In this document: piece after piece, positions 1 to 15,346 of the stretch
How the letters are laid out: each line of letters begins with the position of its first letter
Position numbering within the stretch: position 1 is the stretch's first letter
Virus record (IMG/VR): IMGVR_UViG_3300013099_000089
Location: 1-24,106 of that record
Length of the DNA: 24,106 bases
Strand: one strand, 5' to 3'
From: a virus
The notes under the pieces: model-generated
What the model was told of the DNA's origin: nothing
Seen by the model: the letters and a program-made list of their open reading frames with translations, nothing else
Database searches by the model: none
Made by a program: the position numbers and the translations under genes

Positions 1-3000
1 CCCTACAACAAAACAATATTCTTCGTCTGGTTGCAAAAATACAGGAGCAGAAAATTCAAAATGAGTAGGTATCGTCCCATCACTCGATACGTTAACATTT
101 TCTGGTTTTAATGTTACTTCTGAGTAAGGTACAATAATTGAATTAGGATAACCATTAGTCATATTTCTAATTTGAAACCATGCAGGTTCCTTACCAGTTG
201 TTTTTGCACTAAAGTAAAGGTCTGCCCCTGTCAAAAATACACCGTTCGATTCTGCTACAGAAAAACTTTGAGCAATAGGATCGTCACCACTACCTCTAAC
301 TGGTATTGTTCTTCTACTAACGCTTGTAAGTGTGCGGTTTTGTCTTGTGTTGCGTTCAATTAAATTGGGTGATGTAACTGCAAGAACTGTCTCTCTCGAA
401 GTTTCTGCTAATCCACCTGAATAATGTTGTGCTTCGGCTGAGGTTGTTAACTCGTCTGGATCATCGCTATTGTCTTCTAAATTCGTTAAGCGAAAAACGT
501 TCTTACCTGTGAAGAAACGCTTATCACTTCTGTTAGGAATTGTAAATACACCAACAATTGACCCCGTTGCGTCTGTGACCAATGGTGAAGAGTTCGATCC
601 ATTGATAGGTCTACAATCGACTGTGACAGGTTCATCATTAAAGAAAGCATAAAGTATAGTGTTAGGCAACATATTTGATGCCATAAACTGTACTTCACTG
701 CGTCTAATATAAGGAATTAAATTAACAGAGGTAACACTAGAACCAAGACTTGAATTTGTTATCTGCTCTTCAATAGTTCGATTAACACCTGTACGGGTCT
801 GGTTTGTTTGTGTAGTGGTTGTTGTAGTTCTGCCACTTACGGATCTGTTAGTTTGTTGTGATCTTGTTCTCCAGTTATTCCATTGCGTTCCTAAAACACC
901 TGCCGCATTTGCAATTTGTGCTATGTCTTCAAAACCAGTGTCAATTGCAACGTTTAATGTAGGGGCAGTTGTTGTATCTTTCCAGATGTCATTATCTGGA
1001 CTCAACTTCATACTTCCTTCTGTTTCATAAATGAAATAAGGATTAACTGAAATTGACTTACTTGCCCACGGTTGATTCATCCATGTTTCACTTTGATAAG
1101 GTAGTGTTAATACTTCACCATTTCTTTGAAAGTTACTCGACTTCGATTCATTGAACTTTAATGTAACGGATCGAGGTGTGAAAGAAGGTGCTAACACTCC
1201 ACGTTCGGTGTCCATTGCTGTTGTAAATTCTGAATTAGAAGTATCTGAGGCAATATAGTCTTTGAAGTTGTCTACTAAGAAACCATTCTTAAATCTATCA
1301 AGTCCGTTAGCGTCTTTGACATTTAATGATTCTGTTTCCTTTTCGAGCATATTGAATGTGACATAATATTCAAGGTTGCCAATTCTACGCTCAAGTTTGC
1401 CAATGTCTCGCATTGTATAGCGTTTATTATCAATATACTCCATTCTAACGTCTAAATTGACATCAAATGTATATGGTTTATAATTGATAAAATAAATGCC
1501 CATTGAGTTTTCGGCAGGTTCAGGTTTTCTTGGATTTAAGTCTGGCGTTCCTTTTACAACAAAGAAATTGCCGTCTTCTAATAAGCAAAGAGTGTCCCAT
1601 CTTGATAAATAATATTCAATATCAAAAATAATGTTGCTTTCATCTTCTGGTAAGTTAACCAGTTTTGCACCTACACCTGCAAACGTGCCGTCTGCTCCGA
1701 TAGTTGGTCTAAAGTCAATAGCGTCTGAAAGTTTATAAGTTTCGCCTTCATTGGTTGTATAACTTGGAATATCTTCATAAGTGAAATCAATGTCAGGATC
1801 GTTAACCATTGTTGAATAACTATCCACACTGAAAAAGTCACCTGAGCCTGTATGTTCTAAGTATTCAAATTCAATAGAACAAAGTGACCCTGCTTCTGGC
1901 ATTGTTAAACCTGCGTTTAACGTTATTGTCGCAACATCGTAATAATTGTCTTTTTCACCAGTCTGTAATGTGTAATTTTCAGTAATGTCTGAGTCGTCTG
2001 AAAGATCAATAACGCTCAATAGCTTATATCCATCAGGAGTCATTAAGTTAATAACTGAAACGTCACTTGCAATGTTATTTAAGAATTTTTTATTAAGAAT
2101 TTTTTTACGTTCAAAAATAGAACTTTGTAACACATTAAACGTAAGTGCAAAGTTTTTACCAATATATCCAGTACCAACATTCACTGAAATTTGACTTATC
2201 TCTGCTGTGATGGCGTTTGCGGCAGTTAAATCCCAAGGTAAATAATTGTTGTTTGTAACGGTTTGTAAACCACCCACCCATGTATTAGCGTCAAATGCCA
2301 TATAAGATTCGTTAGCTTCTGCTAAAAATACGGCTTGTCCTGAGTTGTTAACAGACGTAACCATTTTTTTAGTGATAGTCACACTGGTATTTGAGACTAA
2401 CGCATTATCTGCGTCACGTATAGACTTTGTAAATTCATAAGGAACTTTAAATAATAAATTATTATTGACAGTTTCATAAATTTTTGCAACACCTGTCACA
2501 TCATCAACTTTAATATTGCCACCAAAGGTTTGATTACCGCCACCTGAAATATAAATTGATAAAGCATCTGAGATCACTTTACCTTCGAGCATATGAATGT
2601 CAAAAATGTATAAACGGTAAACAGCGTCAATGCCTGCAACACCTGAATCAATTTCAATTAATTTTGAACGAACTGTCCCTACTGGATTTCCAGTAGGGTT
2701 CCCACCACTCATTAACCCATCAAATAATTGTAAGGTTTGATAGTCATTAAAAGTTGTGCTATAAGATGTGTTTGTGTTTGGTATTGTATTACTAGCACTG
2801 TCTAGCTCAATTGTTAAATAATTGCCAATTTGAGGTCTTACAACGGTAGAACGTGTAAATCCTGTGTCTCTTGCTTTTTCAGCGGGCGTAACCCTTTCTG
2901 CGATAATATCAATTTCACGACCCTTAACATAGGCTTTACCTTCACTTGACTTAATAGCAATTTTTGTTTCATCGCCACCGTTTTCTGCAAGTTTCCAACC

Positions 3001-4002
3001 GTCAATTTGTTCATCAGTTTTTAAATGTTCAATAAAATTCACTGTGAATGGTGTTGTTGTGTAGTTACCCGATTCATCATAAGTACGTCTTGCTAACGTA
3101 TTCATTAAGTCTGCATATTCAGTCTTGTCACGAATTTCTTGTAAAACGCCTTCTTCAATTTTAGCCAATAGTGTGAAGTTTTCGTCATCTTCATCAGTTA
3201 AAGGCTTTTTAATAAGGTTTAACGTGATCTTATATCTATCAGCACCCGGAGCTACATAGTTAGGTGATCCTAACGCATTATCATTCAGTGTTGGATCGTC
3301 ATCAGAAGTTACAATACTTTGAATAATATCAAATCCAACTTTGTAAGTTGGCGTTGTACCGTATTTTTCTAATGAAATCATTTGCTGAGGGTTCTCAACA
3401 AATTTTCCAAATACATAGAAACTTGCTTCTTCAACTGCAAATAATGACCCTGTACCTGTTGGCTCAATATTAGCATCGTCTAACGTGTTATCTTGGTCTG
3501 CACCTGTACATGTAGGACAGCGTACTATCACCTCATAAATAACAAAACCTTTATCATCTAAGACTTCTAAAGTTTCACCGTTCACGAATTGTGAAGTTTC
3601 GCCATCAACTGCGGTAGTGCGGTAGTTAACATAAAGCGTATCTGGATCAAATTCAGTTTTAGCAATGGTAAAAAATACTTCTGCTTCAATTCCAGAAGTC
3701 TTACCACGAACGTTATTATAAATGACACGATCAACGTTTGTCGCATCACCCTCAGTATCTAAGTCTTTAAGTCTAACGTATTGTTGATGATTCTTTAAAC
3801 GAACTGACCCTGAGCGAACCATTGAGCCAAATTTGAAAATGTGGTTTGCAAACTCTTCGGTTTGGTTTGATAAAATTGACTGGACTTGATTTAGTTCACG
3901 GGTTTGTAAAGCAACGGAAGGCTTAAATAGCACTTCATAATAATTTTTTGTTGCTTCAAAGTCATCAAAGTATGGCTCTTTGTTAAATTGTAGTTTAGCC
4001 AT
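1..4002 (-). CDS. DUF4815-type long virion structural protein, partial (C-terminus off left edge)
   Basis: An open frame of 1334 codons runs from an ATG at 4002-4000 to the window edge with no stop, so the protein is at least 1334 residues. Upstream, AAGGAA overlapping the stop of the preceding gene is a good ribosome site. Residues 8-60 (EPYFDDFEATKNYYEVLFKP, then ALQTRELNQVQSILSNQTEE) match the N-terminus of DUF4815 proteins, which are large structural proteins of marine T4-like myoviruses. Around residues 1052-1072 there is a Thr/Arg/Gln-rich linker with six consecutive Thr, followed near 1096-1121 by IPYIRRSEVQFM...PNTILYAFF, typical of the same family. The visible end (about 1245-1334) resembles the C-terminal beta domain of these proteins (AQSFSVAESNGVFLTGADLY). 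Its place after gp8 is where T4 has gp9/gp10, so a baseplate-peripheral or fibre-attachment role is inferred. One CPTC pair occurs near residue 160. The family call is fairly certain; the exact role is not known. Confidence 0.85.
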   Translation of the reverse strand, partial: MAKLQFNKEPYFDDFEATKNYYEVLFKPSVALQTRELNQVQSILSNQTEEFANHIFKFGSMVRSGSVRLKNHQQYVRLKDLDTEGDATNVDRVIYNNVRGKTSGIEAEVFFTIAKTEFDPDTLYVNYRTTAVDGETSQFVNGETLEVLDDKGFVIYEVIVRCPTCTGADQDNTLDDANIEPTGTGSLFAVEEASFYVFGKFVENPQQMISLEKYGTTPTYKVGFDIIQSIVTSDDDPTLNDNALGSPNYVAPGADRYKITLNLIKKPLTDEDDENFTLLAKIEEGVLQEIRDKTEYADLMNTLARRTYDESGNYTTTPFTVNFIEHLKTDEQIDGWKLAENGGDETKIAIKSSEGKAYVKGREIDIIAERVTPAEKARDTGFTRSTVVRPQIGNYLTIELDSASNTIPNTNTSYSTTFNDYQTLQLFDGLMSGGNPTGNPVGTVRSKLIEIDSGVAGIDAVYRLYIFDIHMLEGKVISDALSIYISGGGNQTFGGNIKVDDVTGVAKIYETVNNNLLFKVPYEFTKSIRDADNALVSNTSVTITKKMVTSVNNSGQAVFLAEANESYMAFDANTWVGGLQTVTNNNYLPWDLTAANAITAEISQISVNVGTGYIGKNFALTFNVLQSSIFERKKILNKKFLNNIASDVSVINLMTPDGYKLLSVIDLSDDSDITENYTLQTGEKDNYYDVATITLNAGLTMPEAGSLCSIEFEYLEHTGSGDFFSVDSYSTMVNDPDIDFTYEDIPSYTTNEGETYKLSDAIDFRPTIGADGTFAGVGAKLVNLPEDESNIIFDIEYYLSRWDTLCLLEDGNFFVVKGTPDLNPRKPEPAENSMGIYFINYKPYTFDVNLDVRMEYIDNKRYTMRDIGKLERRIGNLEYYVTFNMLEKETESLNVKDANGLDRFKNGFLVDNFKDYIASDTSNSEFTTAMDTERGVLAPSFTPRSVTLKFNESKSSNFQRNGEVLTLPYQSETWMNQPWASKSISVNPYFIYETEGSMKLSPDNDIWKDTTTAPTLNVAIDTGFEDIAQIANAAGVLGTQWNNWRTRSQQTNRSVSGRTTTTTTQTNQTRTGVNRTIEEQITNSSLGSSVTSVNLIPYIRRSEVQFMASNMLPNTILYAFFNDEPVTVDCRPINGSNSSPLVTDATGSIVGVFTIPNRSDKRFFTGKNVFRLTNLEDNSDDPDELTTSAEAQHYSGGLAETSRETVLAVTSPNLIERNTRQNRTLTSVSRRTIPVRGSGDDPIAQSFSVAESNGVFLTGADLYFSAKTTGKEPAWFQIRNMTNGYPNSIIVPYSEVTLKPENVNVSSDGTIPTHFEFSAPVFLQPDEEYCFVVG

Positions 4003-4015
4003 TGGCTAGTATTCC

Positions 4016-4549
4016 TTATGAGTAAATTATAAGCATTGGCATTTTTTTAATACCAAGTCTTTTTGCTAACGCTAATCTGTGATTTCCTTCACCAACGTAA
4101 ACCTCAACATCTCCGTTTGGTTGTCTTCTCACATTAACCACGCCATGATCTTTAATTGACTTGGTTTTTTCAATATCAGTTTTATGTTTTTGCCAACCAA
4201 AATTATCATCTGCGTCAATGTCACGGTCATATTCACGAAATTTCCATAATTTCCTAACGTCATACTTAAACATTAAGCTGTCAGCTAATCGCATATTATG
4301 TTTGGCATATAAGTTAATAACTTTATCAAGTGTTATAATGCCAATTTTATCCATTAATTCTTTTTTACTTCTGATATAAACAGGAAAGTTATCTTGCTTA
4401 ACACCTTTAACCTTAACAGGTTTGCGTTTAGTGCTTTTTATAGGACTGACTTTTTTGGTTGTTTCCTGATATTTATGCTCTGGGTGATCTGGAAACTCAC
4501 CAATAAGGTCATCTAAAATACTTTCATGAAATTGTTTATAAGTTTTCAT
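4016..4549 (-). CDS. ParB/sulfiredoxin-fold nuclease-like protein with T4 internal-protein-like leader
   Basis: The protein has 177 residues. The C-terminal part (about 130-177) contains KDHGVVNV, a short beta hairpin and GEGNHRLALAKRLGIKKMPM (residues 153-172). The GxxNHR helix followed by LGI...P is the core signature of the ParB/Srx fold, whose members cut or bind DNA or bind nucleotides. The middle is basic and helical (residues 35-125). The N-terminus, MKTYKQFHES, closely resembles the leader MKTYQEFIAE that I recall from T4 internal proteins IPII and IPIII, where it targets proteins into the prohead. A possible prohead-protease site, I-G-E before F19, follows at residues 16-18. The start overlaps the gp8 stop by one base (TAATG) and has no clear ribosome site, so it is probably translated by coupling with gp8. 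A ParB-like protein is not part of the T4 baseplate. The fold is a good match; the function and packaging idea are inference. Confidence 0.75.
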   Translation of the reverse strand: MKTYKQFHESILDDLIGEFPDHPEHKYQETTKKVSPIKSTKRKPVKVKGVKQDNFPVYIRSKKELMDKIGIITLDKVINLYAKHNMRLADSLMFKYDVRKLWKFREYDRDIDADDNFGWQKHKTDIEKTKSIKDHGVVNVRRQPNGDVEVYVGEGNHRLALAKRLGIKKMPMLIIYS

Positions 4550-6012
4550 TAAAATTTCAACGTTAGTTTAACGTCTTCAATTTGACCACCTGAACGATAA
4601 ACAGGCTCAATATTTTCAATATACATAATTTCACCTGTGGCTTGCATCAGTTCTTCAAAACCACTTGTATCAGTTCCCGACCAATCTTCATTAGCAGGGC
4701 CAATATATCTTTGAGCAATAGCAGTATTTCCATTTACGTCTTTTGGATCGATTAACATTGTTAATTGTCTAAAATCGCCATCGTCACTATCAATAGGAAA
4801 GTAACCACCCTCGTCATCATCAAAACGGCTGTGTAAGGTCACGTAACGCCCGTTTAGCTCTAAGACTACGTTTGCCCCATGCCCTGACTTTGGAGCCATT
4901 ACAGAGCTTGCTATGGCTCCTGAGCCATCACCTGCAATAACAATGTTAGGTGTAGTTAAATAACCCGTTCCTACATTTGTGATTTGAATTCCAACTACTT
5001 CACCTGCAATTAAAATTACAGTACCTTCGGCTGTAACGCCAGAAGTAGGTGCATCAAAAGTTGCCGTGGCTGAGGTATAACCCGTGCCTGCTACTGCAAT
5101 ATTAGCACTTGAAACTGAAAGAGGTTTTGCGTTTTGTTGCACATTCCATTGAGGGGAACCGTCATCAGTTAATTTTACTTCGATTGGAATGTATTTAGAG
5201 GTTAAGAAAGAAATTGCATCACTAGGACTAACGGTTGCCATATACTGCCATACATAACTATCTGAGGTTATGACGGGATCAATAAATGTCCCCGTTGGTT
5301 TAGCAGTAGAGGGAATTCCACCATTATTATTTAAACATTTGTAAATATTACTTTCGTCTGTCATAACATAAAATGGATTGGTGTATTCAAAGTCTTCTAC
5401 TTCTGGATCGAATTTGTCATAAACTGTCCCCGTTAACCAATCATAACGCTTAATAGCAAAATTGACGCTTGTTTGTTCTAGTCGTTTTGCTGAAATAATG
5501 TCTGATAAAGTTTGAACTTGGCTTATATAATTGTCAACTGGCGTATCTGGCGTATCATTTGTGATAACTTCCCAGTAATCAGTGTCAGACGTTAGGTTGC
5601 CTGCGGTTGCCAATTCATTAATGTAAATATAATTATTTGTATCTTCTACAATGTCACCCAAATTATACGTTGTACCAATATCCCACGTTGGCGATCCTGT
5701 CAGGTCACGCCATTCGTCTTTTTTACCAACCGACAAATATAAATTATTTTCAAAAAAACCAGTTTGAATGATGGCTTCTACTGCTAACCATGAAACGCCA
5801 CCGTCTGAGGCACTACCAGAAACGTGAGTCGGAGGTGTTGCACCACTTGTCCCTGTGGTTTCTGCAATGTATTTATAATTTGAGTTATAAATAACGTCAC
5901 CTATCGCATAAACTGTGGCAGTTAACCAATTATTATAATTATATGTTTGAAAAGAGTTAATAAATGAATTCGCATTATAAACTCTTAACGTGTTTGTTAC
6001 TATTGAAGGCAT
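4549..6012 (-). CDS. 8: Baseplate wedge subunit gp8 homologue, enlarged by inserted modules
   Basis: The protein has 487 residues against 334 for T4 gp8. Segments that line up with T4 gp8 are YLSVGKKDEW (92-101), AIKRYDW (186-192), the ...YVWQYMATVSPSDA block (253-266), YIPI (274-277), DGDFRQLTMLIDP (411-423) and, most clearly, the end from EELMQATGEIMYIEN to the C-terminal Phe (453-487). Between these lie extra pieces. Residues 27-77 and 108-149 each have the pattern W...T.Y..GD.V.....Y, as in small carbohydrate-binding modules of phage fibres, and 301-384 holds two GTGY beta repeats. gp8 is a dimeric wedge protein that connects the baseplate core to peripheral parts. It follows the gp7-position gene by 13 bases with AAGGGA upstream, and its stop overlaps the next gene by one base. 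The assignment rests on sequence pattern plus gene order. Confidence 0.85.
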   Translation of the reverse strand: MPSIVTNTLRVYNANSFINSFQTYNYNNWLTATVYAIGDVIYNSNYKYIAETTGTSGATPPTHVSGSASDGGVSWLAVEAIIQTGFFENNLYLSVGKKDEWRDLTGSPTWDIGTTYNLGDIVEDTNNYIYINELATAGNLTSDTDYWEVITNDTPDTPVDNYISQVQTLSDIISAKRLEQTSVNFAIKRYDWLTGTVYDKFDPEVEDFEYTNPFYVMTDESNIYKCLNNNGGIPSTAKPTGTFIDPVITSDSYVWQYMATVSPSDAISFLTSKYIPIEVKLTDDGSPQWNVQQNAKPLSVSSANIAVAGTGYTSATATFDAPTSGVTAEGTVILIAGEVVGIQITNVGTGYLTTPNIVIAGDGSGAIASSVMAPKSGHGANVVLELNGRYVTLHSRFDDDEGGYFPIDSDDGDFRQLTMLIDPKDVNGNTAIAQRYIGPANEDWSGTDTSGFEELMQATGEIMYIENIEPVYRSGGQIEDVKLTLKF

Positions 6013-6025
6013 TTATTAAAGTCCC

Positions 6026-7645
6026 TTATTCTATTGTTATTATTGAATCGTCATGATATGACATTGTATCTCGGCAATGTCTTATAACTTGATCGATTGT
6101 ATAGTCTTTGAAAGTCCAGATAGGATATTCAAAGCTCTGGTAAAATTTTATGTCGTCTAAGTCATTGTCTGTTAAGTCTATTGCACAAACATTTGACTGT
6201 TCTAATATTTTTTCAATTGAGAGTGCGTTGGCACTGGTTATTGTAATATTATTTATGTCATTTATTAAATCAATGACTACAAATAATGAGCGTGTTACGT
6301 CATCAGGAAGTGAAATACTAACGTCAATGGAATTTTCTAACGCATACATTCCAAATAATTGAGTTCCTGCGGGATGAGCCAAACGTCTAATTTGTTCTAT
6401 CCATTTATGAGGGGAAACCTCAGACTTGATAATGTATGAAAATTTTTGATATAAGTAGCTGTCTTGCATCCTATCATAATTTGATAGCCAATCATTTTGA
6501 TCTTTGTAATATTTAGGTGCGTTGTAAATAACTGCTAACACACTTTCAAGTATTGACCCTACGCCATCCACTGAGGTAATAGTAACGTTAGGTGATGAGG
6601 TATAATTTATGCCTGAGTCAATAACGTCAATTTTTTTTATTTTACCTATATCGTTTCCGTTGAGTTCAATGTTTGCTCCCGTTCCTGTTGCATTTCCAAA
6701 ATAAACAACCGTTTTAAATTGATAGTCATATCCACTATTATTTATAACAATACCTGTTATGGCTCCACTCCCATCAATTGTCTTAACTTCTGCGGAAAAT
6801 CCATAACCTGTGTCACCTACACTGGGGGAGGCATACAGAATATCACCCACAAGATAATTAACCCCACCACTAATAATATTATATTCATTGAAAGCACCCT
6901 TTGTTAAAAGTTTTATTTTTGCCTTAGCATCACCGTCCACTGAAATTGTGTCTTCATAACGATAATTCACACCACCATCTACAATATCAATGGTATTCAC
7001 AAGTGTTAATGTTTTTTCATAAACGCTATAGTCATCAATAGTTAGTTTTATATCCTCATCTTGCAAAAATTGACCCTGATAAGAAGAAATGTCCAGTTTC
7101 ATTACCAATTCATTTTCGTAATAACTTACAGTAATAGCGTCAAGAACACCCGTTGCACCTGAGCTTTGACCCTCAATGAAAGCGTTAAGTTGTTCTGAAT
7201 TTATTGTAAGGCGATCAAAATTCGTGCCCGTAATATACATATAGTCTTCTGAAACCCAATTTCCATTTGAGCTTTCATGTAAAAACTCTCTCGGATAAAA
7301 CGTTTCAAGATCTGCATTGTGTACCATTGTAAAAATGAACTTAAAGGAATTCTCTGACCCTTTAGCAAGATAGAATTCTCTAATGTATTTAATGAGTGTG
7401 TCGCCATCGACCTTTATATCCTTTGGAAAGGTATCTGCAAACTCTTCTAAGTATTCTGCAATAAAGTCATTATCAGCAAGGTCTACATCAATATTATATT
7501 TACAACGTTCAATGAAATCTAAAACGTTGCCTGTTTCTTCCATGTACTCATAATAAGTCTTTATGAATAGTGCAAATAATTGATACTCGTTATTAACAAA
7601 TTGCGGTAACGTATATTGTACTATACTGGAAATTTTATCTTTCAT
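6026..7645 (-). CDS. Baseplate structural protein in the gp7 position (helical N-terminus, GxGY repeats)
   Basis: I place the start at the ATG at 7645-7643 (539 residues) rather than an upstream TTG at 7660. This leaves an 11-base overlap with gp6, with GAGAA about nine bases upstream. Residues 1-125 are mainly helical (QYTLPQFVNNEYQLFALFIK, later YIREFYLAKGSENSFKFIF). This N-terminus is common in marine T4-like structural proteins; its KGS/KGT helix also recalls P2 gpI, which is considered equivalent to the gp7 core. Then follow an ESSNGNWV segment and four beta repeats marked by GGVNY, GGVNY, SGYDY and SGINY (about residues 220-365). After these comes another helical block with SPHKWIEQIRRLAHPAGTQL (about 400-420), also typical of the family. 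It sits between gp6 and gp8, exactly where T4 has gene 7 (1032 residues). I therefore infer that it acts as the third wedge-core subunit, but direct similarity to T4 gp7 is not evident. Confidence 0.7.
   Translation of the reverse strand: MKDKISSIVQYTLPQFVNNEYQLFALFIKTYYEYMEETGNVLDFIERCKYNIDVDLADNDFIAEYLEEFADTFPKDIKVDGDTLIKYIREFYLAKGSENSFKFIFTMVHNADLETFYPREFLHESSNGNWVSEDYMYITGTNFDRLTINSEQLNAFIEGQSSGATGVLDAITVSYYENELVMKLDISSYQGQFLQDEDIKLTIDDYSVYEKTLTLVNTIDIVDGGVNYRYEDTISVDGDAKAKIKLLTKGAFNEYNIISGGVNYLVGDILYASPSVGDTGYGFSAEVKTIDGSGAITGIVINNSGYDYQFKTVVYFGNATGTGANIELNGNDIGKIKKIDVIDSGINYTSSPNVTITSVDGVGSILESVLAVIYNAPKYYKDQNDWLSNYDRMQDSYLYQKFSYIIKSEVSPHKWIEQIRRLAHPAGTQLFGMYALENSIDVSISLPDDVTRSLFVVIDLINDINNITITSANALSIEKILEQSNVCAIDLTDNDLDDIKFYQSFEYPIWTFKDYTIDQVIRHCRDTMSYHDDSIITIE
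6560..6990 (-). repeat. GxGY/GGVNY beta repeats in the gp7-position protein
   Basis: Four copies of a motif DGGVNY, SGGVNY, NSGYDY and DSGINY, each followed by a strand and a Gly-rich turn (GTGANIELNG, GDTGYGFSAEV). The same type of repeat, GTGY...P.....GDGSGA, occurs twice in the neighbouring gp8 homologue (about 4861-5112). Confidence 0.6.
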
Positions 7646-9425
7646 TCTGATAGTTCTCAACTAATGTAACAACTGACTGACTGATTGTTAGGATATTATT
7701 TCTGACTGTGAAAAAGTCTGGGTTTTTGGGTGTACTGTGAACGGCTAGTAAATTTGTATTTGTATAAAGCCCGTCCACTTGAAAATTGGTTAGTCGAACT
7801 TGTCCTAAGTCATAATCTACCACACCAAACGTTTCATCTGGATAAACAACAAATTCATTTTTAAACTCATCCCAATAATAAATATGAATTAGTCCTGTTT
7901 GATTATCATCTTTAAAATATGAGCGTGACATTCTAAAAATGAACTCTTCGGAAAGCACTGACCCCTTCACAATTGGATTGTTAAACTCCACATAATAAGT
8001 CTGAGGTGAGTAAAGTATAGGCTCAAAGCGTTTTTCAATACCAATATTATTATAAGTGGTGAACGCACTTGGATCACTGGCTATAATTCGTGCTGATAAT
8101 GTCGCATCAGAATAGAATGAGCCAAATTTATTTAAGTCGTTTACGTTATAGTCGCTTACAATACCTTCAATAATAGCTCGTAATTGCCCTACTGACAAGT
8201 TGGTTTTTAATGGATTCCAATTTGTTTGAATATCTAAATTAATGTAAAGGAAGTCTGGGTCTATAATAATGGGGTTAATAGTTGCGGTATTGAAACGTTG
8301 CAAAATTTTGATAATGGTATCTTTTGACTTAGATGATAACAGTTCACCAAATTTAGGTTTAATCGATATAAAGACTGCTCCATATTGTTTTGGATCATTA
8401 TCTTCACCACCCCACACCGAAATTGAATTGATGTTACGATATTCTGCCATGAGAATATTTTTATAGTCATCAGTTGTCACACAACGGTTTTGTCTTCGGT
8501 AATGATAAGGAATATTGAAACGTAACTCTTCAATGGTTTCTTTATCCAGACCACCGTCTGAAATTTTAACAGTTGTAAGCTCATAGGTATAGGGTGACTT
8601 TGTTAAACTAAATAATGTTGCAAAATTTCCCTCAACTCCAGATGTTTCAAGATATGACACTTTAATATAATTGGCATTAGCTAACTGCTTACCATAAACG
8701 TTATTACCAAAAAATATTTCATAATAACCTTCTTCGTTCACTGCGATAAAATAAACTTCTGAGTCTTTATCAATTTGTGTGAAGTCATCTGCTCGTTTAT
8801 ACGTCACAAAATTTGACTCTTGATCTGTCTCGTAAACGTCTACCTGAATGGTTTTTATGTCAATATTTTCACTTCTGATAATATAACGTTGGTTTAATAG
8901 AGTATTATCAACAAGATAGCGTGATAAGCTAAAGTGTCCCTCATGAATTGCAACATTACTTACGGTATAGTCATATTGTCCTAATATTGTTGACTCATTA
9001 TAAATGAAAACGTCATCAAGTAAAACAAACACTCGGTTATCTTGAGCGTTATTATCAGAATTAAACTCAGTACCACGATTGATCACTACTTTTTTATTGC
9101 TTGGCTCGTTGCCTGCGTTAATATCCACTTGAATGTCAACATCAGCACTGGCACTTCTGGATGAGTCAGGAACGTAATTCATTAACTTGGCTTTTGAAGT
9201 CATACCAGATAATGTTTGTGCTGAGTCAATAAAACTTTCATTCGCTAACATATGAGCATAAAAACCCATATAGTGAGTGTTATAAGCCAACACGTCCATT
9301 AAGATGTTCATACCACTGGCTGTAAAGTCGTAGTCCTTAAACTCTTGTTGGTTTTTCATATAACCTATCAGGTTATCTTTAATACCCTGAAAGTCTAAAT
9401 TTTGTACGTTTAAATTTTGTGACAT
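7635..9425 (-). CDS. 6: Baseplate wedge subunit gp6 (gpJ-like)
   Basis: At 596 residues it is near the 660 of T4 gp6. The N-terminus carries the conserved helical core of the family: LDFQGIKDNLIGYMKNQQEF followed by DYDFTASGMNILMDVLAYNT and MGFYAHMLANESFIDSAQ (residues 10-72). The middle has VTTDDYKNILMAEYRNINSI and then DPKQYGAVFISIKPKFGE (about 315-360), which is characteristic of gp6/baseplate J proteins. The C-terminal ~120 residues look like a beta domain. In T4, two gp6 copies per wedge clamp gp7 and link neighbouring wedges into the ring around the hub. Its start codon overlaps the gp25 stop by one base (TAATG) and is preceded by AGAGAG, indicating coupled translation. Its stop lies inside the next gene. 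The assignment is strong from motifs and from its position after gp25. Confidence 0.93.
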   Translation of the reverse strand: MSQNLNVQNLDFQGIKDNLIGYMKNQQEFKDYDFTASGMNILMDVLAYNTHYMGFYAHMLANESFIDSAQTLSGMTSKAKLMNYVPDSSRSASADVDIQVDINAGNEPSNKKVVINRGTEFNSDNNAQDNRVFVLLDDVFIYNESTILGQYDYTVSNVAIHEGHFSLSRYLVDNTLLNQRYIIRSENIDIKTIQVDVYETDQESNFVTYKRADDFTQIDKDSEVYFIAVNEEGYYEIFFGNNVYGKQLANANYIKVSYLETSGVEGNFATLFSLTKSPYTYELTTVKISDGGLDKETIEELRFNIPYHYRRQNRCVTTDDYKNILMAEYRNINSISVWGGEDNDPKQYGAVFISIKPKFGELLSSKSKDTIIKILQRFNTATINPIIIDPDFLYINLDIQTNWNPLKTNLSVGQLRAIIEGIVSDYNVNDLNKFGSFYSDATLSARIIASDPSAFTTYNNIGIEKRFEPILYSPQTYYVEFNNPIVKGSVLSEEFIFRMSRSYFKDDNQTGLIHIYYWDEFKNEFVVYPDETFGVVDYDLGQVRLTNFQVDGLYTNTNLLAVHSTPKNPDFFTVRNNILTISQSVVTLVENYQNER

Positions 9426-9826
9426 TATCTTACTCTCTGTAAATAAATTGTGACCGTAACTGGTTCTAGTTGGTTTTCAGTAACGTAAATAATTGTCACT
9501 TTATATTCTTGCTCTGTAACTTCGTTCAATTCGACTATTACATTTTGAACTTTGGCTCTTGGTTCGTATTTTCCGATACCAAATTCAATAACGGATTGTA
9601 TCTCATTTTGAGTAACAAAAGTAGCAGGCTCAAATAAATAATGTCTCAATCCTATATCAATTTCACGATTAAAAGACCTGTCCCCTGCATCCGTCATAAT
9701 TAACATTTGCAATGCTCTACTGACTGCCTCTTCATCATACTTTTTCGGCACGTCACCCGTTAATGGGTGTGCTGTGAATGTTAGATCAAGGTCTGTGTAT
9801 ATTCTGGTTTTATTTTTTTTAAACAT
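9425..9826 (-). CDS. 25: Baseplate wedge subunit gp25 (GPW/gp25 family)
   Basis: At 133 residues it is almost identical in length to T4 gp25 (132). The sequence shows the family layout: an N-terminal Y.DLDL.F..HP.TGD segment (10-25), a helix beginning VSRALQMLIMT, the DAGDRSFNREIDIGLRHYLF strand-turn (46-65), and the YEPR motif at residues 87-90, whose EPR is the most conserved part of the gp25/GPW family. These small proteins form the sheath-initiating collar of the baseplate, donating strands to the first sheath ring. Three bases separate it from the PAAR gene, and GGATAAGAA lies just before the ATG. It shares one base with gp6. Lysozyme activity, sometimes annotated for this family in older databases, is not expected. 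Confidence 0.95.
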   Translation of the reverse strand: MFKKNKTRIYTDLDLTFTAHPLTGDVPKKYDEEAVSRALQMLIMTDAGDRSFNREIDIGLRHYLFEPATFVTQNEIQSVIEFGIGKYEPRAKVQNVIVELNEVTEQEYKVTIIYVTENQLEPVTVTIYLQRVR

Positions 9827-10179: not shown

Positions 10180-11793
10180 TTATAAGTCATTGTTTTCGTG
10201 CTCACATGGATCACATTGAGACTTGACCCTATTATCTTCTTCTGGTTCTAAGTCTGGGTATATAGGATCTTTTGGTTCACAACCATATGGATCACAAGTC
10301 TTTTCAGTGTCCATTGCTAAGACATAATCTTCCATACACGATTTAGCAATGCCTTCAATGGGTTCTTCAATTATTTCAATTATTTCAGGTTCGTCACAAG
10401 GACAAAGTTCTAATGGGGTCAAGTTGTTCACTTTAAATACTTCGTCAACACATGGATCACATGGATTGTCATTTTCAATAGGTCTTAATCCCTCTTCAAT
10501 TTCAGGTTCAGGACATGGTACACACATTCCATTACTATTTATACTCACAAGTCCCTGATACTCTGGCAAAATTAAACAATTATCACAAAGTCCTTTTGCC
10601 TCTTCTTCTAATGGTAAGACTATAGGCTCAGGTATAGGCTCAATGAATTTGGGTTCTTCGCCTTTATCCCACTCTTTAATGAAAACTTGTTGTTGAAAAT
10701 TAATTCTATTATCAAGATATGCTTTAAGGTCTAAGTCCCAGTTATTAATTACACAAATATAAAAAATACCGTCAATATAAGTTTCAGGCTCTCTTGGAAA
10801 ATATGCTCTAATTTCAACTGGGTAATTATAGGTTTCGGTAATAGCAAGTTTTTCCCCCACTTTAAAGTCATTATCAACAATATCACTTTTTTGCCATGTG
10901 CGTAATGATAAAAATGGGGGCATTTCTTCTATGGATAATTCCAAATCACAATCAAGACGTGACCCATTTTTATTGATAATGTTAAAACGCAAGTCTGTAA
11001 AATTATAAACAGGTGCATATAGTGACCAAACGTTAGCTTTAGCCCCTGTTTCTATTGGCTCCAAGTCAATTACAACACTTTCAGGAATGAATTCTCCTTC
11101 TATTGTCTCTACATAAGGATCAATTGCTAATTTTAACTCACAATCTGTGTATTGAAACATGTCTTTAAAAACAAAACGGTCTTCAAACACTTCTGACACA
11201 CTACGCCATGCAAAGCTAGGCTTAATGTCAGGTCTTGAAAAACAGTCTTGTTCTGGTATAAATCCAGATATGAAACCACCCGTAGTCATTAATAATGGCG
11301 TTGGTAACGCACCACCTATAATAAAATAAGCGATAGGCTCTAAACAAGGGGGTGGTGGTGGTTCTGGTATGTCAATATTTCTAACCCATGCACCGTGCCC
11401 CATATCATTAAAATTTGGAAATAATATAAAAGGGTAGTCTGTAAACTCAATGTTGAGCGTATAGTCAACACTATCAGATGACTTTAAACAAAAGTAATAC
11501 TCACCGATAAGCCCATCATAGATAATTTCATTATAAAAATTTTGAATGTAACTAATACCAACTGGCAATAGTTCGCCATCTTGATAACGGTATAAATGCA
11601 ATTCGATGTCAATAGAGTTGGTTGTGTGTGGGGTCACGTCTATACGATATGTCATTGTTTCATTTTTTAACATATCGTATTCGTAATAGTCCACATCATT
11701 AAGACTCAATGATCCTATATAGTCAGCGTTAGGCGTTAGCTTTATTACATTCGTGCTTTCTAAGAAAAACTTTTCAATACAATTAATTGCCAT
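10180..11793 (-). CDS. Putative tail or adhesin protein with Cys-rich CxxC repeat tail
   Basis: The ATG at 11793-11791 follows a near-perfect ribosome site (AAGGAGG at 11800-11806), so I take 537 residues. A longer frame reaching 11841 would start without such a site. The gene overlaps the upstream stop by 11 bases. I do not recognise the whole protein. Residues 20-120 look like a small beta-sandwich (TYRIDVTP...IDIELHLYR). A PEPPPPPC linker lies near 143-150. Residues about 190-370 hold further beta segments including GSRLDCDLELSIEEMPPFLS, which resembles a unit of the neighbouring 1182-residue protein. From 396 to the end the sequence is acidic, rich in Pro and Glu, and carries 13 Cys mostly as CxxC pairs (CDNC, CVPC, CDPC, CPC, CDPYGC, CDPC) about 21 residues apart. 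There is no signal peptide or membrane segment. Its place between adhesins and the spike suggests a virion part; its function is unknown. Confidence 0.7.
   Translation of the reverse strand: MAINCIEKFFLESTNVIKLTPNADYIGSLSLNDVDYYEYDMLKNETMTYRIDVTPHTTNSIDIELHLYRYQDGELLPVGISYIQNFYNEIIYDGLIGEYYFCLKSSDSVDYTLNIEFTDYPFILFPNFNDMGHGAWVRNIDIPEPPPPPCLEPIAYFIIGGALPTPLLMTTGGFISGFIPEQDCFSRPDIKPSFAWRSVSEVFEDRFVFKDMFQYTDCELKLAIDPYVETIEGEFIPESVVIDLEPIETGAKANVWSLYAPVYNFTDLRFNIINKNGSRLDCDLELSIEEMPPFLSLRTWQKSDIVDNDFKVGEKLAITETYNYPVEIRAYFPREPETYIDGIFYICVINNWDLDLKAYLDNRINFQQQVFIKEWDKGEEPKFIEPIPEPIVLPLEEEAKGLCDNCLILPEYQGLVSINSNGMCVPCPEPEIEEGLRPIENDNPCDPCVDEVFKVNNLTPLELCPCDEPEIIEIIEEPIEGIAKSCMEDYVLAMDTEKTCDPYGCEPKDPIYPDLEPEEDNRVKSQCDPCEHENNDL
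10183..10608 (-). repeat. CxxC repeat tail with ~21-residue spacing
   Basis: Residues 396-537 of the 537-residue protein. Cys occur at 403/406, 424/427, 445/448, 464/466, 486, 500/505 and 527/530, giving a step of about 19-22 residues. Between them are Pro/Glu-rich stretches such as PCPEPEIEEGLRPIE and CPCDEPEIIEIIEEPIE. The arrangement suggests metal sites or disulfides along an extended acidic arm. Confidence 0.65.
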
Positions 11794-14700
11794 CGTTTTC
11801 CTCCTTCGGTGACGTAAATAAAGATATACCCGTTTCGCCATTTTCTGTGACTAATAGTGGTAGTGTATAACACCTTGCGTCCATTTGATGTTCAAATTCA
11901 GCCATTTCCATTGTTGGTATAGGAATGTCTTCAGTGATTGGATCGCCATTTTCATCTAATGGTTTCCATTCATTTATTAAACAACTGTCAACTGGAGTAT
12001 GCCAATTTAAACCTAAACCAATTGGTACATAGAATGACTCTAACGTTGCATGTTCTCCACCCCAACCTAAAATTGGTGGCACGTACCACGTTCCTTGCAC
12101 ATAAGAGCCTACTATTATAGTGTTTACTGAAAATTCAGGAATATCAATATAAGAATAAAAACCTAATCTTGCTCGTAAGAGCCAAGGTGGGAAAGTGGTT
12201 AATGTGAAGTCTAAACGAGATCCAGAATAATAATCAACTTTCATACCCTTAACAGATGAGAACGTTCCGACTGTACACTCTTCACCCGCTCTGGCTGAAT
12301 ACTCTATACAGTCAAAGTTTAATTCATTACCGAAGTCAAACGTTACGTTATTACCAATAGGAATGATATAACCCGGACAAAAGCGAATATATTCAATATT
12401 TTCAAATACAAAATCCATCCATGACGTTACATTCATTTTAGTGAATATTTCACGGTATCTTGCAGTCTCACCCATTAAGAATAAGTCACTGGTTTTTGCA
12501 ATACCTGTCTCTGCCACAAATGGGCTAGACTCAATACCACCTTCTAATTCAAATGTGAGTGAGTAACTAGCAGGTAAGTCAACTTGAATTTCTGATAATA
12601 CAGAATAAGGCACTGTCGGCTGATCGTTGTAAAGCACCTCATTAGGAATTGGATAAATTTCATTATCAAATCCTGTTAATGGGTATTTATCAAGTCCTAA
12701 CGACTCACATACACTTCCATGACTAAATTCAACTTCAAAACGTTTATTAACTGCTAATTCAAGGTCTTCAATACCCATTCTGTCATTGTTACAAACATTC
12801 CAAACACGGAAACCTTGATCGTCAAATTCAAATTCTAACGTTTCATATTCACTCGGTCTTACTGTTACATCACCCCAATCTGGATCGAGTTCTGTTAAAT
12901 TACAGAAATTGATACCACCTACACCACCCCAACCGTCACGTAAGGTCGATCCAAAATAAACATCAAGGACAAGACTTGCAGAAACGATAACGTCAAATGA
13001 CATATATGTGTTAGAACCAGTTTCATAAACAATTGACATACCCTCGCCTAATGGCACGTCTATATCAAAGGTTGCTTCTGAGCCAAAAATAATGTCAGGG
13101 ACTAACGCTACAAATTCAAATGATAATTCTAAGAATGTATCTGAATTATGCTCATAAGTCATTGCAAAGGTTGACCCGACATTTAAGAAAACGTCCAGTA
13201 CCTCACCACCATGATAAGCGTTATTTATCCAGTTGAATTCATCTAAGGTGTCAAACCATGCGTTAGCCCCATTATAAGCCTGAACATCCATTTCCTGTGA
13301 AGGGTTATCGACTAATTGAAAGTCTGCTAGATATTGACCTGCAAATGCTCTGGGATATAAGGCTCTTGCAGTTTGTAATTCAAAATCAGATTCAAGTCCA
13401 TGCTCTGCTAAACTGTCAAGTTCCGCAGGTAGGTTTTCAGAAAAGTCAAGTTCTACATATTCACCATATTCAAAGTCATATTCAAATTCTACACCACCTG
13501 AATTGTTTAAATAGTCAAGTTGTGTACTTGCTCCTGAAAATGCTTCTGGATAGAGTGCATAAGTGGTGTTGAGCGTTAATGTAAGGACTTCTGAGCCATG
13601 TTCTACCTTAGTTACACCTAGACCCTCACTAGGACTGTCTGTAAGCTCTAAGTCGCTCTCAGAGCCATGTAGAGCGTCCATGTCTAAAATGGCATTAATG
13701 ATAATTGTATCTAATACTGCATTTTGTCCAGACTCAGCATAAACGTCAAGTTCAATTGAAGGGAAAATATCCAGTTCAAAGTCAAGGGTTTCTTGTCCAT
13801 GCTCTGCGTCAACATCATATATTACGGGAGCCGTTAGCCATTCAAAATGAAACTCTTGTCCATTATAAATCTCATCAATCTCTAACGTTGGTGCAGGATG
13901 ATCGTCAAGATCATGTTCTACATACGCTCCAGAATATGCGTCAACATCAGTAAAGACAATAATAGAAGTAAAGTCTGCGTCTGAATAAGAGCCATGCTCA
14001 TAATCAACTTCTAACGTCTTAACTGGATTGTCATCTAATTCAAAATCAGAGTAAGCACCAAATCTTGCCAAAGTCTCAAAATATGGGGTCACTTCTATTT
14101 CAAAGGCTTCTTGATACGCACCCGAATAAGCATTGAATATATCAAAGATAATTTCAACACCTAAACTGGTAGATACATCAGCACCATGATAGGCAACTAA
14201 TTCTAATGCTGAACATTCATAATCATAATTAAAATGATAATAGAAATTGTGAGGTACTACATCTAACGCAGGGTTTGAGTCAGAAGGACAAAGTTTAAAG
14301 TTCCAGTTTAAATTCTTACCATAACCACCTTGAGAGGATAGCTCTAAATTAGGATTGGGTACGCCACCTGAAAATAAATCGAGGTCAAGTGTTGCCGCTT
14401 GCGTACCACGACTTGCAAATGATAATTGAAAATCCATCTCAACATCAGCAAGAAAATCAACTTTAATTGGAAATTGTTTACAACTATCATCAACACCATA
14501 ATCAATTATAATCTTTTCATTGAATAATCGAGTAAGTTCTGTATCTGCAAGCTCGGTTACGTCATTAACTAATTGAACTGTTGATGTGAACGTAGAATGA
14601 GGACACAGGACAAAATCATGACTAAGTTCTAACGTTTTTTGTGTGTCAAGTGTTGCTTCTGCACTTACACAATTAACAGCGTGAGCAAAGTCCCACTCAT

Positions 14701-15331
14701 AAAGCATATCAAAAATTGTCCAATCTTCACCAAATGCAATATCATAACCTAAGTTTATAGGCTCATCACTCGAATTAAAGGTAAAATCGTATGGATCGCT
14801 ATCATCTGAATTGGTCAGAATTTCGCCACCCATCTCAAAGATGATATTATGAATGTTAGGTGCTTTATAAGGACAAAGCACGGGCATCAAATTGAAATTA
14901 ACAACACGATTTTTAGGATATGTTTCTAACGCTAACTCAATGTTTTGCACAATTTGAATATAGGTCGCACACACATAATTATATTCAAGGAAATAAAGAG
15001 GTTCTGGATCAAAACAAATTGAAAAATTTCGTTGGGTTTGTAAGCCTAATTGAACATCGAGGTCTACTGTTAACGTTTGCCCATGAGTAAAATAATTTTC
15101 ACAAAGGTAATTATACTCAAAGGTATAGAATTCGTGTCTATGCTCACAAATACCAAATGAGGCATGAGTGGAGTTATAAAAGAAAAACACGCCATAAGAC
15201 CCCCCGTAAGCGTCTATTGTACCAATAGATTGCGGTTCGGGTGGTGGTATGTGCGAATCATCTGTTATGAAAGGATAAAGACTTTTATCCCCTTCTGTTT
15301 TTGTCGTGTCAAAATTGATCTCAAGTGGCAC
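11783..15331 (-). CDS. Large repetitive virion protein with ~22-residue beta repeats
   Basis: The protein has 1182 residues and starts at a GTG (15331-15329) that is six bases after AAGGGG. An ATG two bases upstream is in another frame. Three regions are visible. Residues 1-378 hold Cys/Tyr-rich modules with EYNYLC (72-77), EYNYVC (116-121) and NYDYEC (368-373) and with LCP at 152, 242 and 348. Residues about 379-798 are roughly nineteen degenerate repeats of 20-23 residues, each opening with G-[AQSE] and ending in an aromatic or acidic residue before H, S or N (for example GAYVEHDLDDHP then ...LEIDEIYN). The last ~380 residues are a less regular beta-rich tail ending in an acidic segment. 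The composition is strongly acidic. There is no signal peptide or enzyme motif. A fibre shaft or adhesin is inferred from its place after LamG proteins. Its stop overlaps the next gene by 11 bases, and both share a GSRLD...PP.L motif. Confidence 0.75.
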   Translation of the reverse strand: MPLEINFDTTKTEGDKSLYPFITDDSHIPPPEPQSIGTIDAYGGSYGVFFFYNSTHASFGICEHRHEFYTFEYNYLCENYFTHGQTLTVDLDVQLGLQTQRNFSICFDPEPLYFLEYNYVCATYIQIVQNIELALETYPKNRVVNFNLMPVLCPYKAPNIHNIIFEMGGEILTNSDDSDPYDFTFNSSDEPINLGYDIAFGEDWTIFDMLYEWDFAHAVNCVSAEATLDTQKTLELSHDFVLCPHSTFTSTVQLVNDVTELADTELTRLFNEKIIIDYGVDDSCKQFPIKVDFLADVEMDFQLSFASRGTQAATLDLDLFSGGVPNPNLELSSQGGYGKNLNWNFKLCPSDSNPALDVVPHNFYYHFNYDYECSALELVAYHGADVSTSLGVEIIFDIFNAYSGAYQEAFEIEVTPYFETLARFGAYSDFELDDNPVKTLEVDYEHGSYSDADFTSIIVFTDVDAYSGAYVEHDLDDHPAPTLEIDEIYNGQEFHFEWLTAPVIYDVDAEHGQETLDFELDIFPSIELDVYAESGQNAVLDTIIINAILDMDALHGSESDLELTDSPSEGLGVTKVEHGSEVLTLTLNTTYALYPEAFSGASTQLDYLNNSGGVEFEYDFEYGEYVELDFSENLPAELDSLAEHGLESDFELQTARALYPRAFAGQYLADFQLVDNPSQEMDVQAYNGANAWFDTLDEFNWINNAYHGGEVLDVFLNVGSTFAMTYEHNSDTFLELSFEFVALVPDIIFGSEATFDIDVPLGEGMSIVYETGSNTYMSFDVIVSASLVLDVYFGSTLRDGWGGVGGINFCNLTELDPDWGDVTVRPSEYETLEFEFDDQGFRVWNVCNNDRMGIEDLELAVNKRFEVEFSHGSVCESLGLDKYPLTGFDNEIYPIPNEVLYNDQPTVPYSVLSEIQVDLPASYSLTFELEGGIESSPFVAETGIAKTSDLFLMGETARYREIFTKMNVTSWMDFVFENIEYIRFCPGYIIPIGNNVTFDFGNELNFDCIEYSARAGEECTVGTFSSVKGMKVDYYSGSRLDFTLTTFPPWLLRARLGFYSYIDIPEFSVNTIIVGSYVQGTWYVPPILGWGGEHATLESFYVPIGLGLNWHTPVDSCLINEWKPLDENGDPITEDIPIPTMEMAEFEHQMDARCYTLPLLVTENGETGISLFTSPKEENDGN
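11800..11806 (-). promoter_or_regulatory. Ribosome binding site deciding the start of the 537-residue protein
   Basis: The minus strand reads AAGGAGG followed by AAAACG and ATG. This near-consensus site is inside the 3' end of the 1182-residue gene and selects the ATG at 11793 over any start further upstream. Confidence 0.8.
12940..14197 (-). repeat. About nineteen degenerate ~22-residue repeats
   Basis: Residues about 379-798 of the 1182-residue protein. Each unit starts G-[AQSE], runs through an alternating hydrophobic strand such as DFELD or LTLTLN, often has a Pro in the middle (DNP, DHP, DSP, FPS), and ends with a second strand and A-[YE]-[HSN]. The alternating pattern suggests a beta-solenoid or fibre shaft. 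Units vary from 20 to 23 residues and are not conserved at DNA level. Confidence 0.7.
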
Positions 15332-15337
15332 ATCTTA

Positions 15338-15343
15338 CCCCTT
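15338..15343 (-). promoter_or_regulatory. Ribosome binding site for a GTG start, overlapping an out-of-frame ATG
   Basis: The minus strand reads AAGGGG, then TAAGAT, then GTG for the 1182-residue protein. The T of the spacer makes ATGTG, so an ATG two bases upstream lies in the wrong frame. The long frame needs the GTG. Confidence 0.6.
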
Positions 15344-15346
15344 GAA

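What the first reader, a model, noticed from the sequence alone, without database searches (positions are those of the whole stretch)
4016..4549. ParB-fold protein carrying a T4 internal-protein-like capsid-targeting leader inside the baseplate operon
The first ten residues, MKTYKQFHES, differ by only a few positions from MKTYQEFIAE, the start of T4 IPII and IPIII as I recall them. That leader directs the internal proteins into the prohead, and the prohead protease removes it after an (I/L)-x-E site. Here I16-G17-E18 gives a fitting site. The rest is a basic protein ending in a ParB/Srx core with GEGNHR. Together this suggests a DNA- or nucleotide-acting effector that is packaged and injected, although it is encoded between gp8 and DUF4815.
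Basis: partly seen in the sequence, partly recalled or inferred. Interest (0 to 1): 0.65.

Follow-up and report, generated by a model that had tools for sequence, protein, structure and literature searches.

The report
Capsid-targeted ParB-fold phage cargo protein
A marine virus of bacteria carries a small protein whose first few amino acids look like a shipping label that loads it into the virus head, so that it is probably injected into the host with the viral DNA; the same kind of label marks many unrelated proteins in related viruses and could be used to find injected anti-defence proteins.

Summary
The ORF is real (4016-4549, minus strand, 177 aa), coupled to gp8 and just ahead of DUF4815/VrlC. 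Comparison supports the capsid-targeting reading. MKTYKQF starts at least 115 ORFs in viral contigs, on 67 unrelated bodies; a scrambled 7-mer gives 9 stretches. Beyond the searched residues the T4 processing signature reappears: [ILMV]xE ends at residue 10 in 48% (1% elsewhere), Glu at 9 or 10 in 84%. Bodies are strongly basic, like T4 internal proteins, and include Acb1 and SAM lyase. Of 50 larger contigs 20 carry gp23 and 20 the gp21 protease; 1 carries an HK97-type capsid gene. Relatives (38-40% identity) begin MKSFSQFIEEG or similar and lie in tandem blocks of leader genes; the GEGNHR domain also sits behind other lineage-specific leaders. Correction: I16-G17-E18 is not conserved; the likely cut is after E9. 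The body is a ParB/Srx fold without cysteine or HTH, so neither sulfiredoxin nor partition ParB; its activity is unknown. New variant of a known kind (T4 internal proteins). Packaging, cleavage and injection are inferred, not shown.

The parts
4016..4549 (-). ORF of the leader-bearing ParB/Srx-fold protein (177 aa, P0001)
   Evidence: start overlaps the gp8 stop (TAATG)
4523..4549 (-). Leader, residues 1-9 MKTYKQFHE; proposed cut after E9, before S10
   Evidence: MKTYKQF on 67 unrelated bodies with E9 or E10 in 56 of 67; aligned glutamate conserved in relatives
4496..4504 (-).
   Evidence: Relatives have L-A-D, V-G-D, L-G-S here; IPI sequence
4385..4522 (-). Residues 10-55: LDD motif followed by a Lys/Arg-rich, low-confidence linker
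   Evidence: pLDDT about 50-67 over residues 1-40; pI 9.4 for residues 10-55
4019..4384 (-). Residues 56-177: ParB/sulfiredoxin-fold domain
   Evidence: AlphaFold pLDDT mostly above 90; Foldseek and VIA-align matches to Srx, ParB, SerK, SbnI
4232..4234 (-). Codon of invariant E106 (R-E-Y motif)
   Evidence: Invariant in 22 sequences
4076..4093 (-). GEGNHR motif, residues 153-158 (pocket motif of the ParB/Srx fold)
   Evidence: Invariant in 22 sequences; aligns with the HR motif of SbnI
4549..6012 (-). gp8 baseplate wedge gene, upstream neighbour, start-stop overlap
   Evidence: PF09215 3.4e-8, phrog_438 1.3e-67
1..4002 (-). DUF4815/VrlC-type baseplate gene, downstream neighbour, cut by the contig end
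   Evidence: PF16075 8.9e-57
6026..9826 (-). Rest of the baseplate wedge operon: gp7-like, gp6, gp25

Best explanation
The protein is an internal (head-packaged, injected) protein of a marine T4-like phage. (1) Its N-terminal amphipathic leader MKTYKQFHE binds the prohead core, as the T4 capsid-targeting sequence does. (2) The gp21-type prohead protease removes the leader, most likely after E9 (F-H-E|S), leaving a basic protein of about 168 residues. (3) The Lys-rich segment helps hold it among the packaged DNA. (4) It enters the host with the DNA, where the ParB/Srx domain (E106, GEGNHR pocket) acts at once on a nucleotide or nucleic-acid substrate, most plausibly against an early host defence or for host take-over. 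It is made from within the baseplate operon, so that it is present while heads assemble. Shown here: the ORF, the shared leader, the processing signature, the association with gp21/gp23, the tandem cargo blocks around relatives, the fold. Inferred: packaging, cleavage, injection (about 0.8). Guess: the activity in the host (nucleotide-dependent enzyme about 0.5).
For: Leader on 67 unrelated bodies against 9 scrambled-peptide stretches. [ILMV]xE ending at residue 10 in 32 of 67 against 1% beyond residue 60; E9 or E10 in 56 of 67; codons vary (36 distinct 21-mers), so the peptide is what is selected. Bodies basic: median pI 9.9 against 5.8 (P about 1e-16); this protein 9.7. gp23 in 20 and gp21 in 20 of 50 larger contigs, HK97-type capsid in 1. 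Relatives at 38-40% identity begin MKSFSQFIEEG, MKTFSQFMQEG and the like; the two long contigs have gp21 and gp23, and the gene lies inside tandem blocks of genes with the same leader and other bodies. Relatives in other lineages sit behind those lineages' own shared leaders with L/I-x-E: MKLxxLFES, MNRELNxLLE, LIRES. gp21 of two relatives begins MKLISEFSE / MKLIAEFNE. Leader proteins include Acb1, SAM lyase and GNATs, and some match PHROGs 'internal head protein' and 'internal virion protein' from residue 1. T4 Ip1-3 block GmrSD restriction (PMC12373910).
Against: No proteomics. The window is a 24 kb fragment without head genes, so gp21 in this very phage is not seen. F-H-E is not the classical L/I-x-E; the E9 class is inferred from a minority (17 of 67 with E9 only) and from relatives. 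The gene lies in the baseplate operon, whereas relatives lie in cargo blocks, so a tail role is not excluded. In the nearest named marine phages (HTVC008M, Mosig, Melnitz, S-SM1) the leader motif is rare or absent. What the ParB/Srx domain does is unknown.
Confidence: 0.8

Rival explanations
1. The protein is a baseplate or tail component or assembly factor: its gene sits between gp8 and VrlC, and the N-terminal helix docks it to the baseplate rather than to the prohead core.
For: Position and start-stop coupling within the wedge operon.
Against: In five named relatives gp8 and VrlC adjoin with no gene between, so it is an insertion, not a conserved baseplate part. Relatives lie away from the baseplate genes, in blocks of leader genes. 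The leader occurs on GNATs, Acb1 and SAM lyase.
Confidence: 0.1
2. The leader is a targeting signal for something else made during infection (membrane, replication site, chaperone), and the I/L-x-E signature is an accident of an amphipathic helix.
For: The motif is a short helix in the model (H4-15, low confidence); no packaging shown.
Against: Glutamate at exactly 9 or 10 in 84%, often followed by a small residue, in phages with gp21, and the gp21 protease itself carrying a like N-terminus. A helix alone does not predict a fixed glutamate.
Confidence: 0.08
3. Packaged as proposed, but the cut is after E18 (I-G-E|F), as in T4 IPI (I-T-E at 17-19).
For: Fits L/I-x-E literally; IPI has I-T-E at 17-19 and its mature form has 76 residues (PMC3012670).
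Against: Relatives have D or S where E18 stands; the aligned glutamate that is kept is E9. In T4 an Asp at the cut position blocks processing (PMC9026906).
Confidence: 0.2
4. The injected ParB/Srx domain is a decoy or subunit mimic of host ParB/Srx-fold defence proteins (GmrS, DndB-like) rather than an enzyme.
For: GmrS is a ParB-like domain and T4 internal proteins target GmrSD (PMC5512222; PMC12373910).
Against: E106 and GEGNHR are strictly invariant across very divergent relatives, which looks like a kept pocket rather than a binding surface. Not tested.
Confidence: 0.1

Closest known systems
T4 internal proteins IPI, IPII, IPIII with the capsid-targeting sequence
   Same: N-terminal MKT[YF]xxF leader, small basic body, T4-type phages, bodies unrelated to each other, genes in tandem blocks in relatives
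   Different: Body is a ParB/Srx fold; register of the glutamate is 9 rather than 10; gene lies in the baseplate operon; packaging not shown
ParB/sulfiredoxin superfamily (ParB N-domain, Srx, SerK/SbnI free serine kinase)
   Same: Fold and the HR motif of the nucleotide pocket
   Different: No catalytic Cys of Srx (no cysteine at all), no HTH or parS-binding part of ParB, no C-terminal domain of SerK/SbnI
DdrB-like ParB domains of polyvalent proteins (phage P1 DdrB)
   Same: ParB/Srx domain in phage proteins thought to be packaged and injected (PMC5512222)
   Different: Here a solo domain behind a short leader instead of a domain inside a giant protein
phrog_3147, ParB-like proteins of mycobacteriophages (Tonenili, Stubby)
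   Same: Among the best sequence and structure matches in annotated phages
   Different: 500-790 aa proteins with the domain inside; leader not examined there

Membership tests
T4 internal proteins (CTS cargo) | N-terminal leader with aromatic residues at 4 and 7 (targeting positions) | tested here: met
   Y4 and F7; positions from PMC9026906
T4 internal proteins (CTS cargo) | Prohead protease site L/I-x-E at the end of the leader | tested here: inconclusive
   F-H-E at 7-9 (conserved Glu, unusual P3) and I-G-E at 16-18 (not conserved); canonical sites in relatives and in 32 of 67 leader proteins
T4 internal proteins (CTS cargo) | Phage encodes gp21-type protease and gp23-type capsid | tested here: inconclusive
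   Not in the 24 kb fragment; present in both long relatives and many leader contigs
T4 internal proteins (CTS cargo) | Small basic body | tested here: met
   pI 9.66
T4 internal proteins (CTS cargo) | Found processed inside the mature head and injected | not testable with these tools
   Needs virion proteomics
ParB/Srx fold superfamily | Fold and pocket motif | tested here: met
   Pfam ParB_N only 0.046, below its cut-off
Sulfiredoxin | Catalytic cysteine in the GCHR motif | tested here: not met
   Protein has no cysteine; N156 stands at that place of the motif (motif from general knowledge)
ParB partition protein (CTP clamp) | HTH parS-binding domain after the N-domain, ParA partner | tested here: not met
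   Protein ends with the ParB/Srx fold at residue 177; no ParA seen in the window
SerK/SbnI free serine kinase | Serine kinase activity and second domain | tested here: inconclusive
   HR motif aligns (E 0.49); fold Z 4.6-5.8; second domain absent; activity not testable

The most novel reading that the evidence does not exclude
Phages with a gp21-type prohead protease use lineage-specific N-terminal zip codes (MKTYKQF, MKSFSQFxEA, MKLxxLFES, MNRELNxLLE, LxxLIRES) as a general loading system. Cargo genes move between systems by swapping the leader, and the GEGNHR ParB/Srx domain is a recurrent cargo found behind all five. Reading the leaders would list injected effectors, anti-CBASS and anti-restriction proteins included, directly from sequence.
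Probability: 0.6. Interest if true: 0.82.

Novelty: new variant of a known kind. Interest (0 to 1): 0.68.

Why it matters
T4 internal proteins are the textbook case of proteins injected to disarm host restriction, and in the papers I could read they are described in T-even phages of enterobacteria. If the same leader system runs through marine T4-like phages and more distant phages with gp21-type proteases, a nine-residue tag becomes a predictor of injected effectors, most of which have no known function. It would also explain how Acb1 and SAM lyase could act before phage transcription starts, and it gives a simple test with the existing T4 CTS-GFP packaging assay.

Tried and rejected
Direct search of viral contigs with the single protein found no relatives; the GEGNHR pattern and a four-row profile did. 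phmmer against PDB gave only noise. PADLOC gave nothing. I expected many MKT[FY]xxF leaders in named cyanophages and pelagiphages: an exact pattern found one in five genomes and a wider one a few, so the system is patchy. Sulfiredoxin and partition ParB were rejected on residues and domain content. A DNA- or RNA-level element at the leader was rejected because codons vary freely. No paper with these leader peptides was found. A tblastn of a closer relative against named phages found nothing. The baseplate-part idea was weakened by gp8-VrlC adjacency in five relatives.

Full report
What is there. The window is a 24,106-base viral contig. The finding is an ORF on the minus strand, 4016-4549, 177 aa, MKTYKQFHESILDDLIGEF...GEGNHRLALAKRLGIKKMPMLIIYS. 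Its ATG overlaps the stop of gp8 (TAATG), and the DUF4815/VrlC gene starts 13 bases beyond its end. In five named relatives (HTVC008M, Melnitz, Moby, S-SM1, Mosig) gp8 and VrlC are adjacent with nothing between, so this gene is an insertion in a conserved operon.

The leader against T4. The T4 record gives MKTYQEFIAEA for IPII and IPIII and MKTFKEFTSTTTPVSTITEA for IPI. In T4, residues 4 and 7 of the IPIII leader matter for targeting and residues 8 and 10 for processing, and the protease cuts after L/I-x-E (PMC9026906). The window keeps Y4 and F7 but not I8 and E10.

Is the leader more than chance? Of 124 sites, 115 start ORFs of 45 aa or more and 2 lie deep inside ORFs; clustering by body leaves 67 unrelated proteins. 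Residues 8-11 were not part of the search, yet [ILMV]xE ends at residue 10 in 32 of 67 (background 1%), E10 occurs in 39, residue 11 is most often Ala, Leu or Ser, and E9 or E10 is present in 56 of 67. There are two registers: F-[ILMV]-x-E at 10 and F-x-E at 9, the latter mostly followed by G or Q. The window protein belongs to the second. Codons 2-7 all vary, with four codons used for T3, so selection is on the peptide. The bodies are basic: median pI 9.9 against 5.8 for other ORFs of such phages, P about 1e-16; the window protein is 9.66. T4 internal proteins are likewise basic (PMC9026906).

Which phages. Of 50 larger contigs carrying the leader or the GEGNHR motif, 20 have T4 gp23 (PF07068) and 20 have the gp21 protease (PF03420), largely the same ones; only 1 has an HK97-type capsid gene. 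Leader genes lie just downstream of gp23 in G016 and G022, and G029 has four consecutive leader genes with different bodies.

What the cargo is. Among 67 leader proteins Pfam finds Acb1, the anti-CBASS protein (L028, 1.7e-18), S-adenosylmethionine lyase (2 members, best 2.9e-20), cytidylyltransferases and GNAT acetyltransferases; PHROGs 'internal head protein' (2667) and 'internal virion protein' (7857) match some of them from residue 1. SAM lyase and Acb1 counter restriction and CBASS (established knowledge of these families). T4 Ip1-3 all block GmrSD type IV restriction (PMC12373910).

Relatives of this protein. A GEGNHR pattern scan and a profile scan gave relatives. The closest full-length ones, 35-40% identical, start MKSFSQFIEEGFLDD, MKTFSQFMQEGFLDD, MKTFSQFREGFLDD, or from GTG MKRLKSYLVQEGFLDD and MKRFARYIEEGFLDD. 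Aligned, the window's E9 corresponds to their leader glutamate, while E18 is D or S. In G059, G060, G063 and G064 the gene lies beside further leader genes (MKSFSQFSEA, MKTFSQFNEA, MKRFSQFIEED) with other bodies; the two long contigs carry gp21 and gp23, and their gp21 begins MKLISEFSE or MKLIAEFNE. In G050 the relative (44% identical, MKLSQFLQEA) is in a block of about ten genes starting MKLxxLFE[SN] or close variants. In G051 the GEGNHR protein starts MNREINERLDD, like five other proteins starting MNRELNRLLE and variants. In G038, G039 and G052 it starts with an LLRxLIRES-type helix, and in G038 and G052 genes placed between gp21 and gp23, where the scaffold lies, begin with the same kind of helix. 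An unbiased test of shared N-termini among unrelated proteins of one genome recovers these leaders and the T4 one (G050 7, G059 7, G060 2, G029 10, G051 14, T4 part 1 pairs, against 0-0.4 expected from internal stretches); it also picks up a few other N-terminal families, and several genomes give none. So this ParB/Srx domain recurs behind lineage-specific leaders. Some distant GEGNHR proteins (L148, L159) have no evident leader.

The body. AlphaFold on an 18-sequence alignment gives pLDDT 83 overall, above 90 for most of residues 41-177, and a helix at 4-15 with low confidence. The fold matches sulfiredoxin, ParB, SerK and SbnI (Foldseek probability near 1 with E 0.005-0.05; VIA-align Z 4.6-6.7); by the tool's own note such Z values alone are modest, but the HR motif aligns with SbnI and viral ParB-like proteins match. 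E106 and GEGNHRL are invariant in 22 sequences. There is no cysteine and no HTH. ParB/Srx domains have been reported as NTPases, nickases and nucleases, and fused versions occur in injected polyvalent proteins (PMC5512222). Which of these applies here is not known.

Verdict. The cut is more likely after E9 than E18. The protein is best described as a T4-type internal protein with a ParB/Srx body, and the wider pattern, leaders that differ by lineage on exchangeable cargo, is the more interesting result. Everything about packaging and injection is inference from comparison.

Noticed in passing
L248 / G050:10727-22434: Block of about ten genes with unrelated bodies starting MKLxxLFE[SN], including two GNATs, a ParB C-terminal-domain-like protein and the GEGNHR relative; looks like another capsid-targeting leader in a phage of unidentified type.
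   Followed up: partly
G051 (L228-L234), 12789-13529, 88382-88735, 113209-114018, 132954-133892: Six proteins share MNRELNxLLE-type N-termini with L-x-E near residue 17, the GEGNHR protein among them; the gp21 homologue sits in a 538 aa ORF.
   Followed up: partly
G038:28687-29894, G052:116817-117288: Genes between gp21 and gp23 (scaffold position) begin with an LKxLVKE-type helix like that of the GEGNHR proteins of the same lineage.
   Followed up: partly
L028:1370-1831: Anti-CBASS Acb1 homologue carrying the leader MKTYKQFISEK, suggesting a pre-packaged, injected anti-CBASS protein.
   Followed up: partly
G029:108446-110334: Four tandem genes with MKTYKQF[IM]xE[AS] leaders: two GNAT-like, one that looks by eye like an ADP-ribosyltransferase (no Pfam match), one basic unknown.
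   Followed up: partly
G059:69056-69715 and G060:40763-41425: The gp21 prohead protease itself begins MKLISEFSE / MKLIAEFNE, like the cargo leaders; parallels the LIE-9 site noted for T4 gp21 (PMC9026906).
   Followed up: no
G035 (contig of L089), 110468-113540: gp23 and gp21 matches are interrupted by several in-frame TGA and TAA codons; fragmentary or recoded, not examined.
   Followed up: no
window:18276-24095 and 11783-17140: Very large tail-like ORFs with repeated modules in the same orientation, upstream in the operon; not studied.
   Followed up: no
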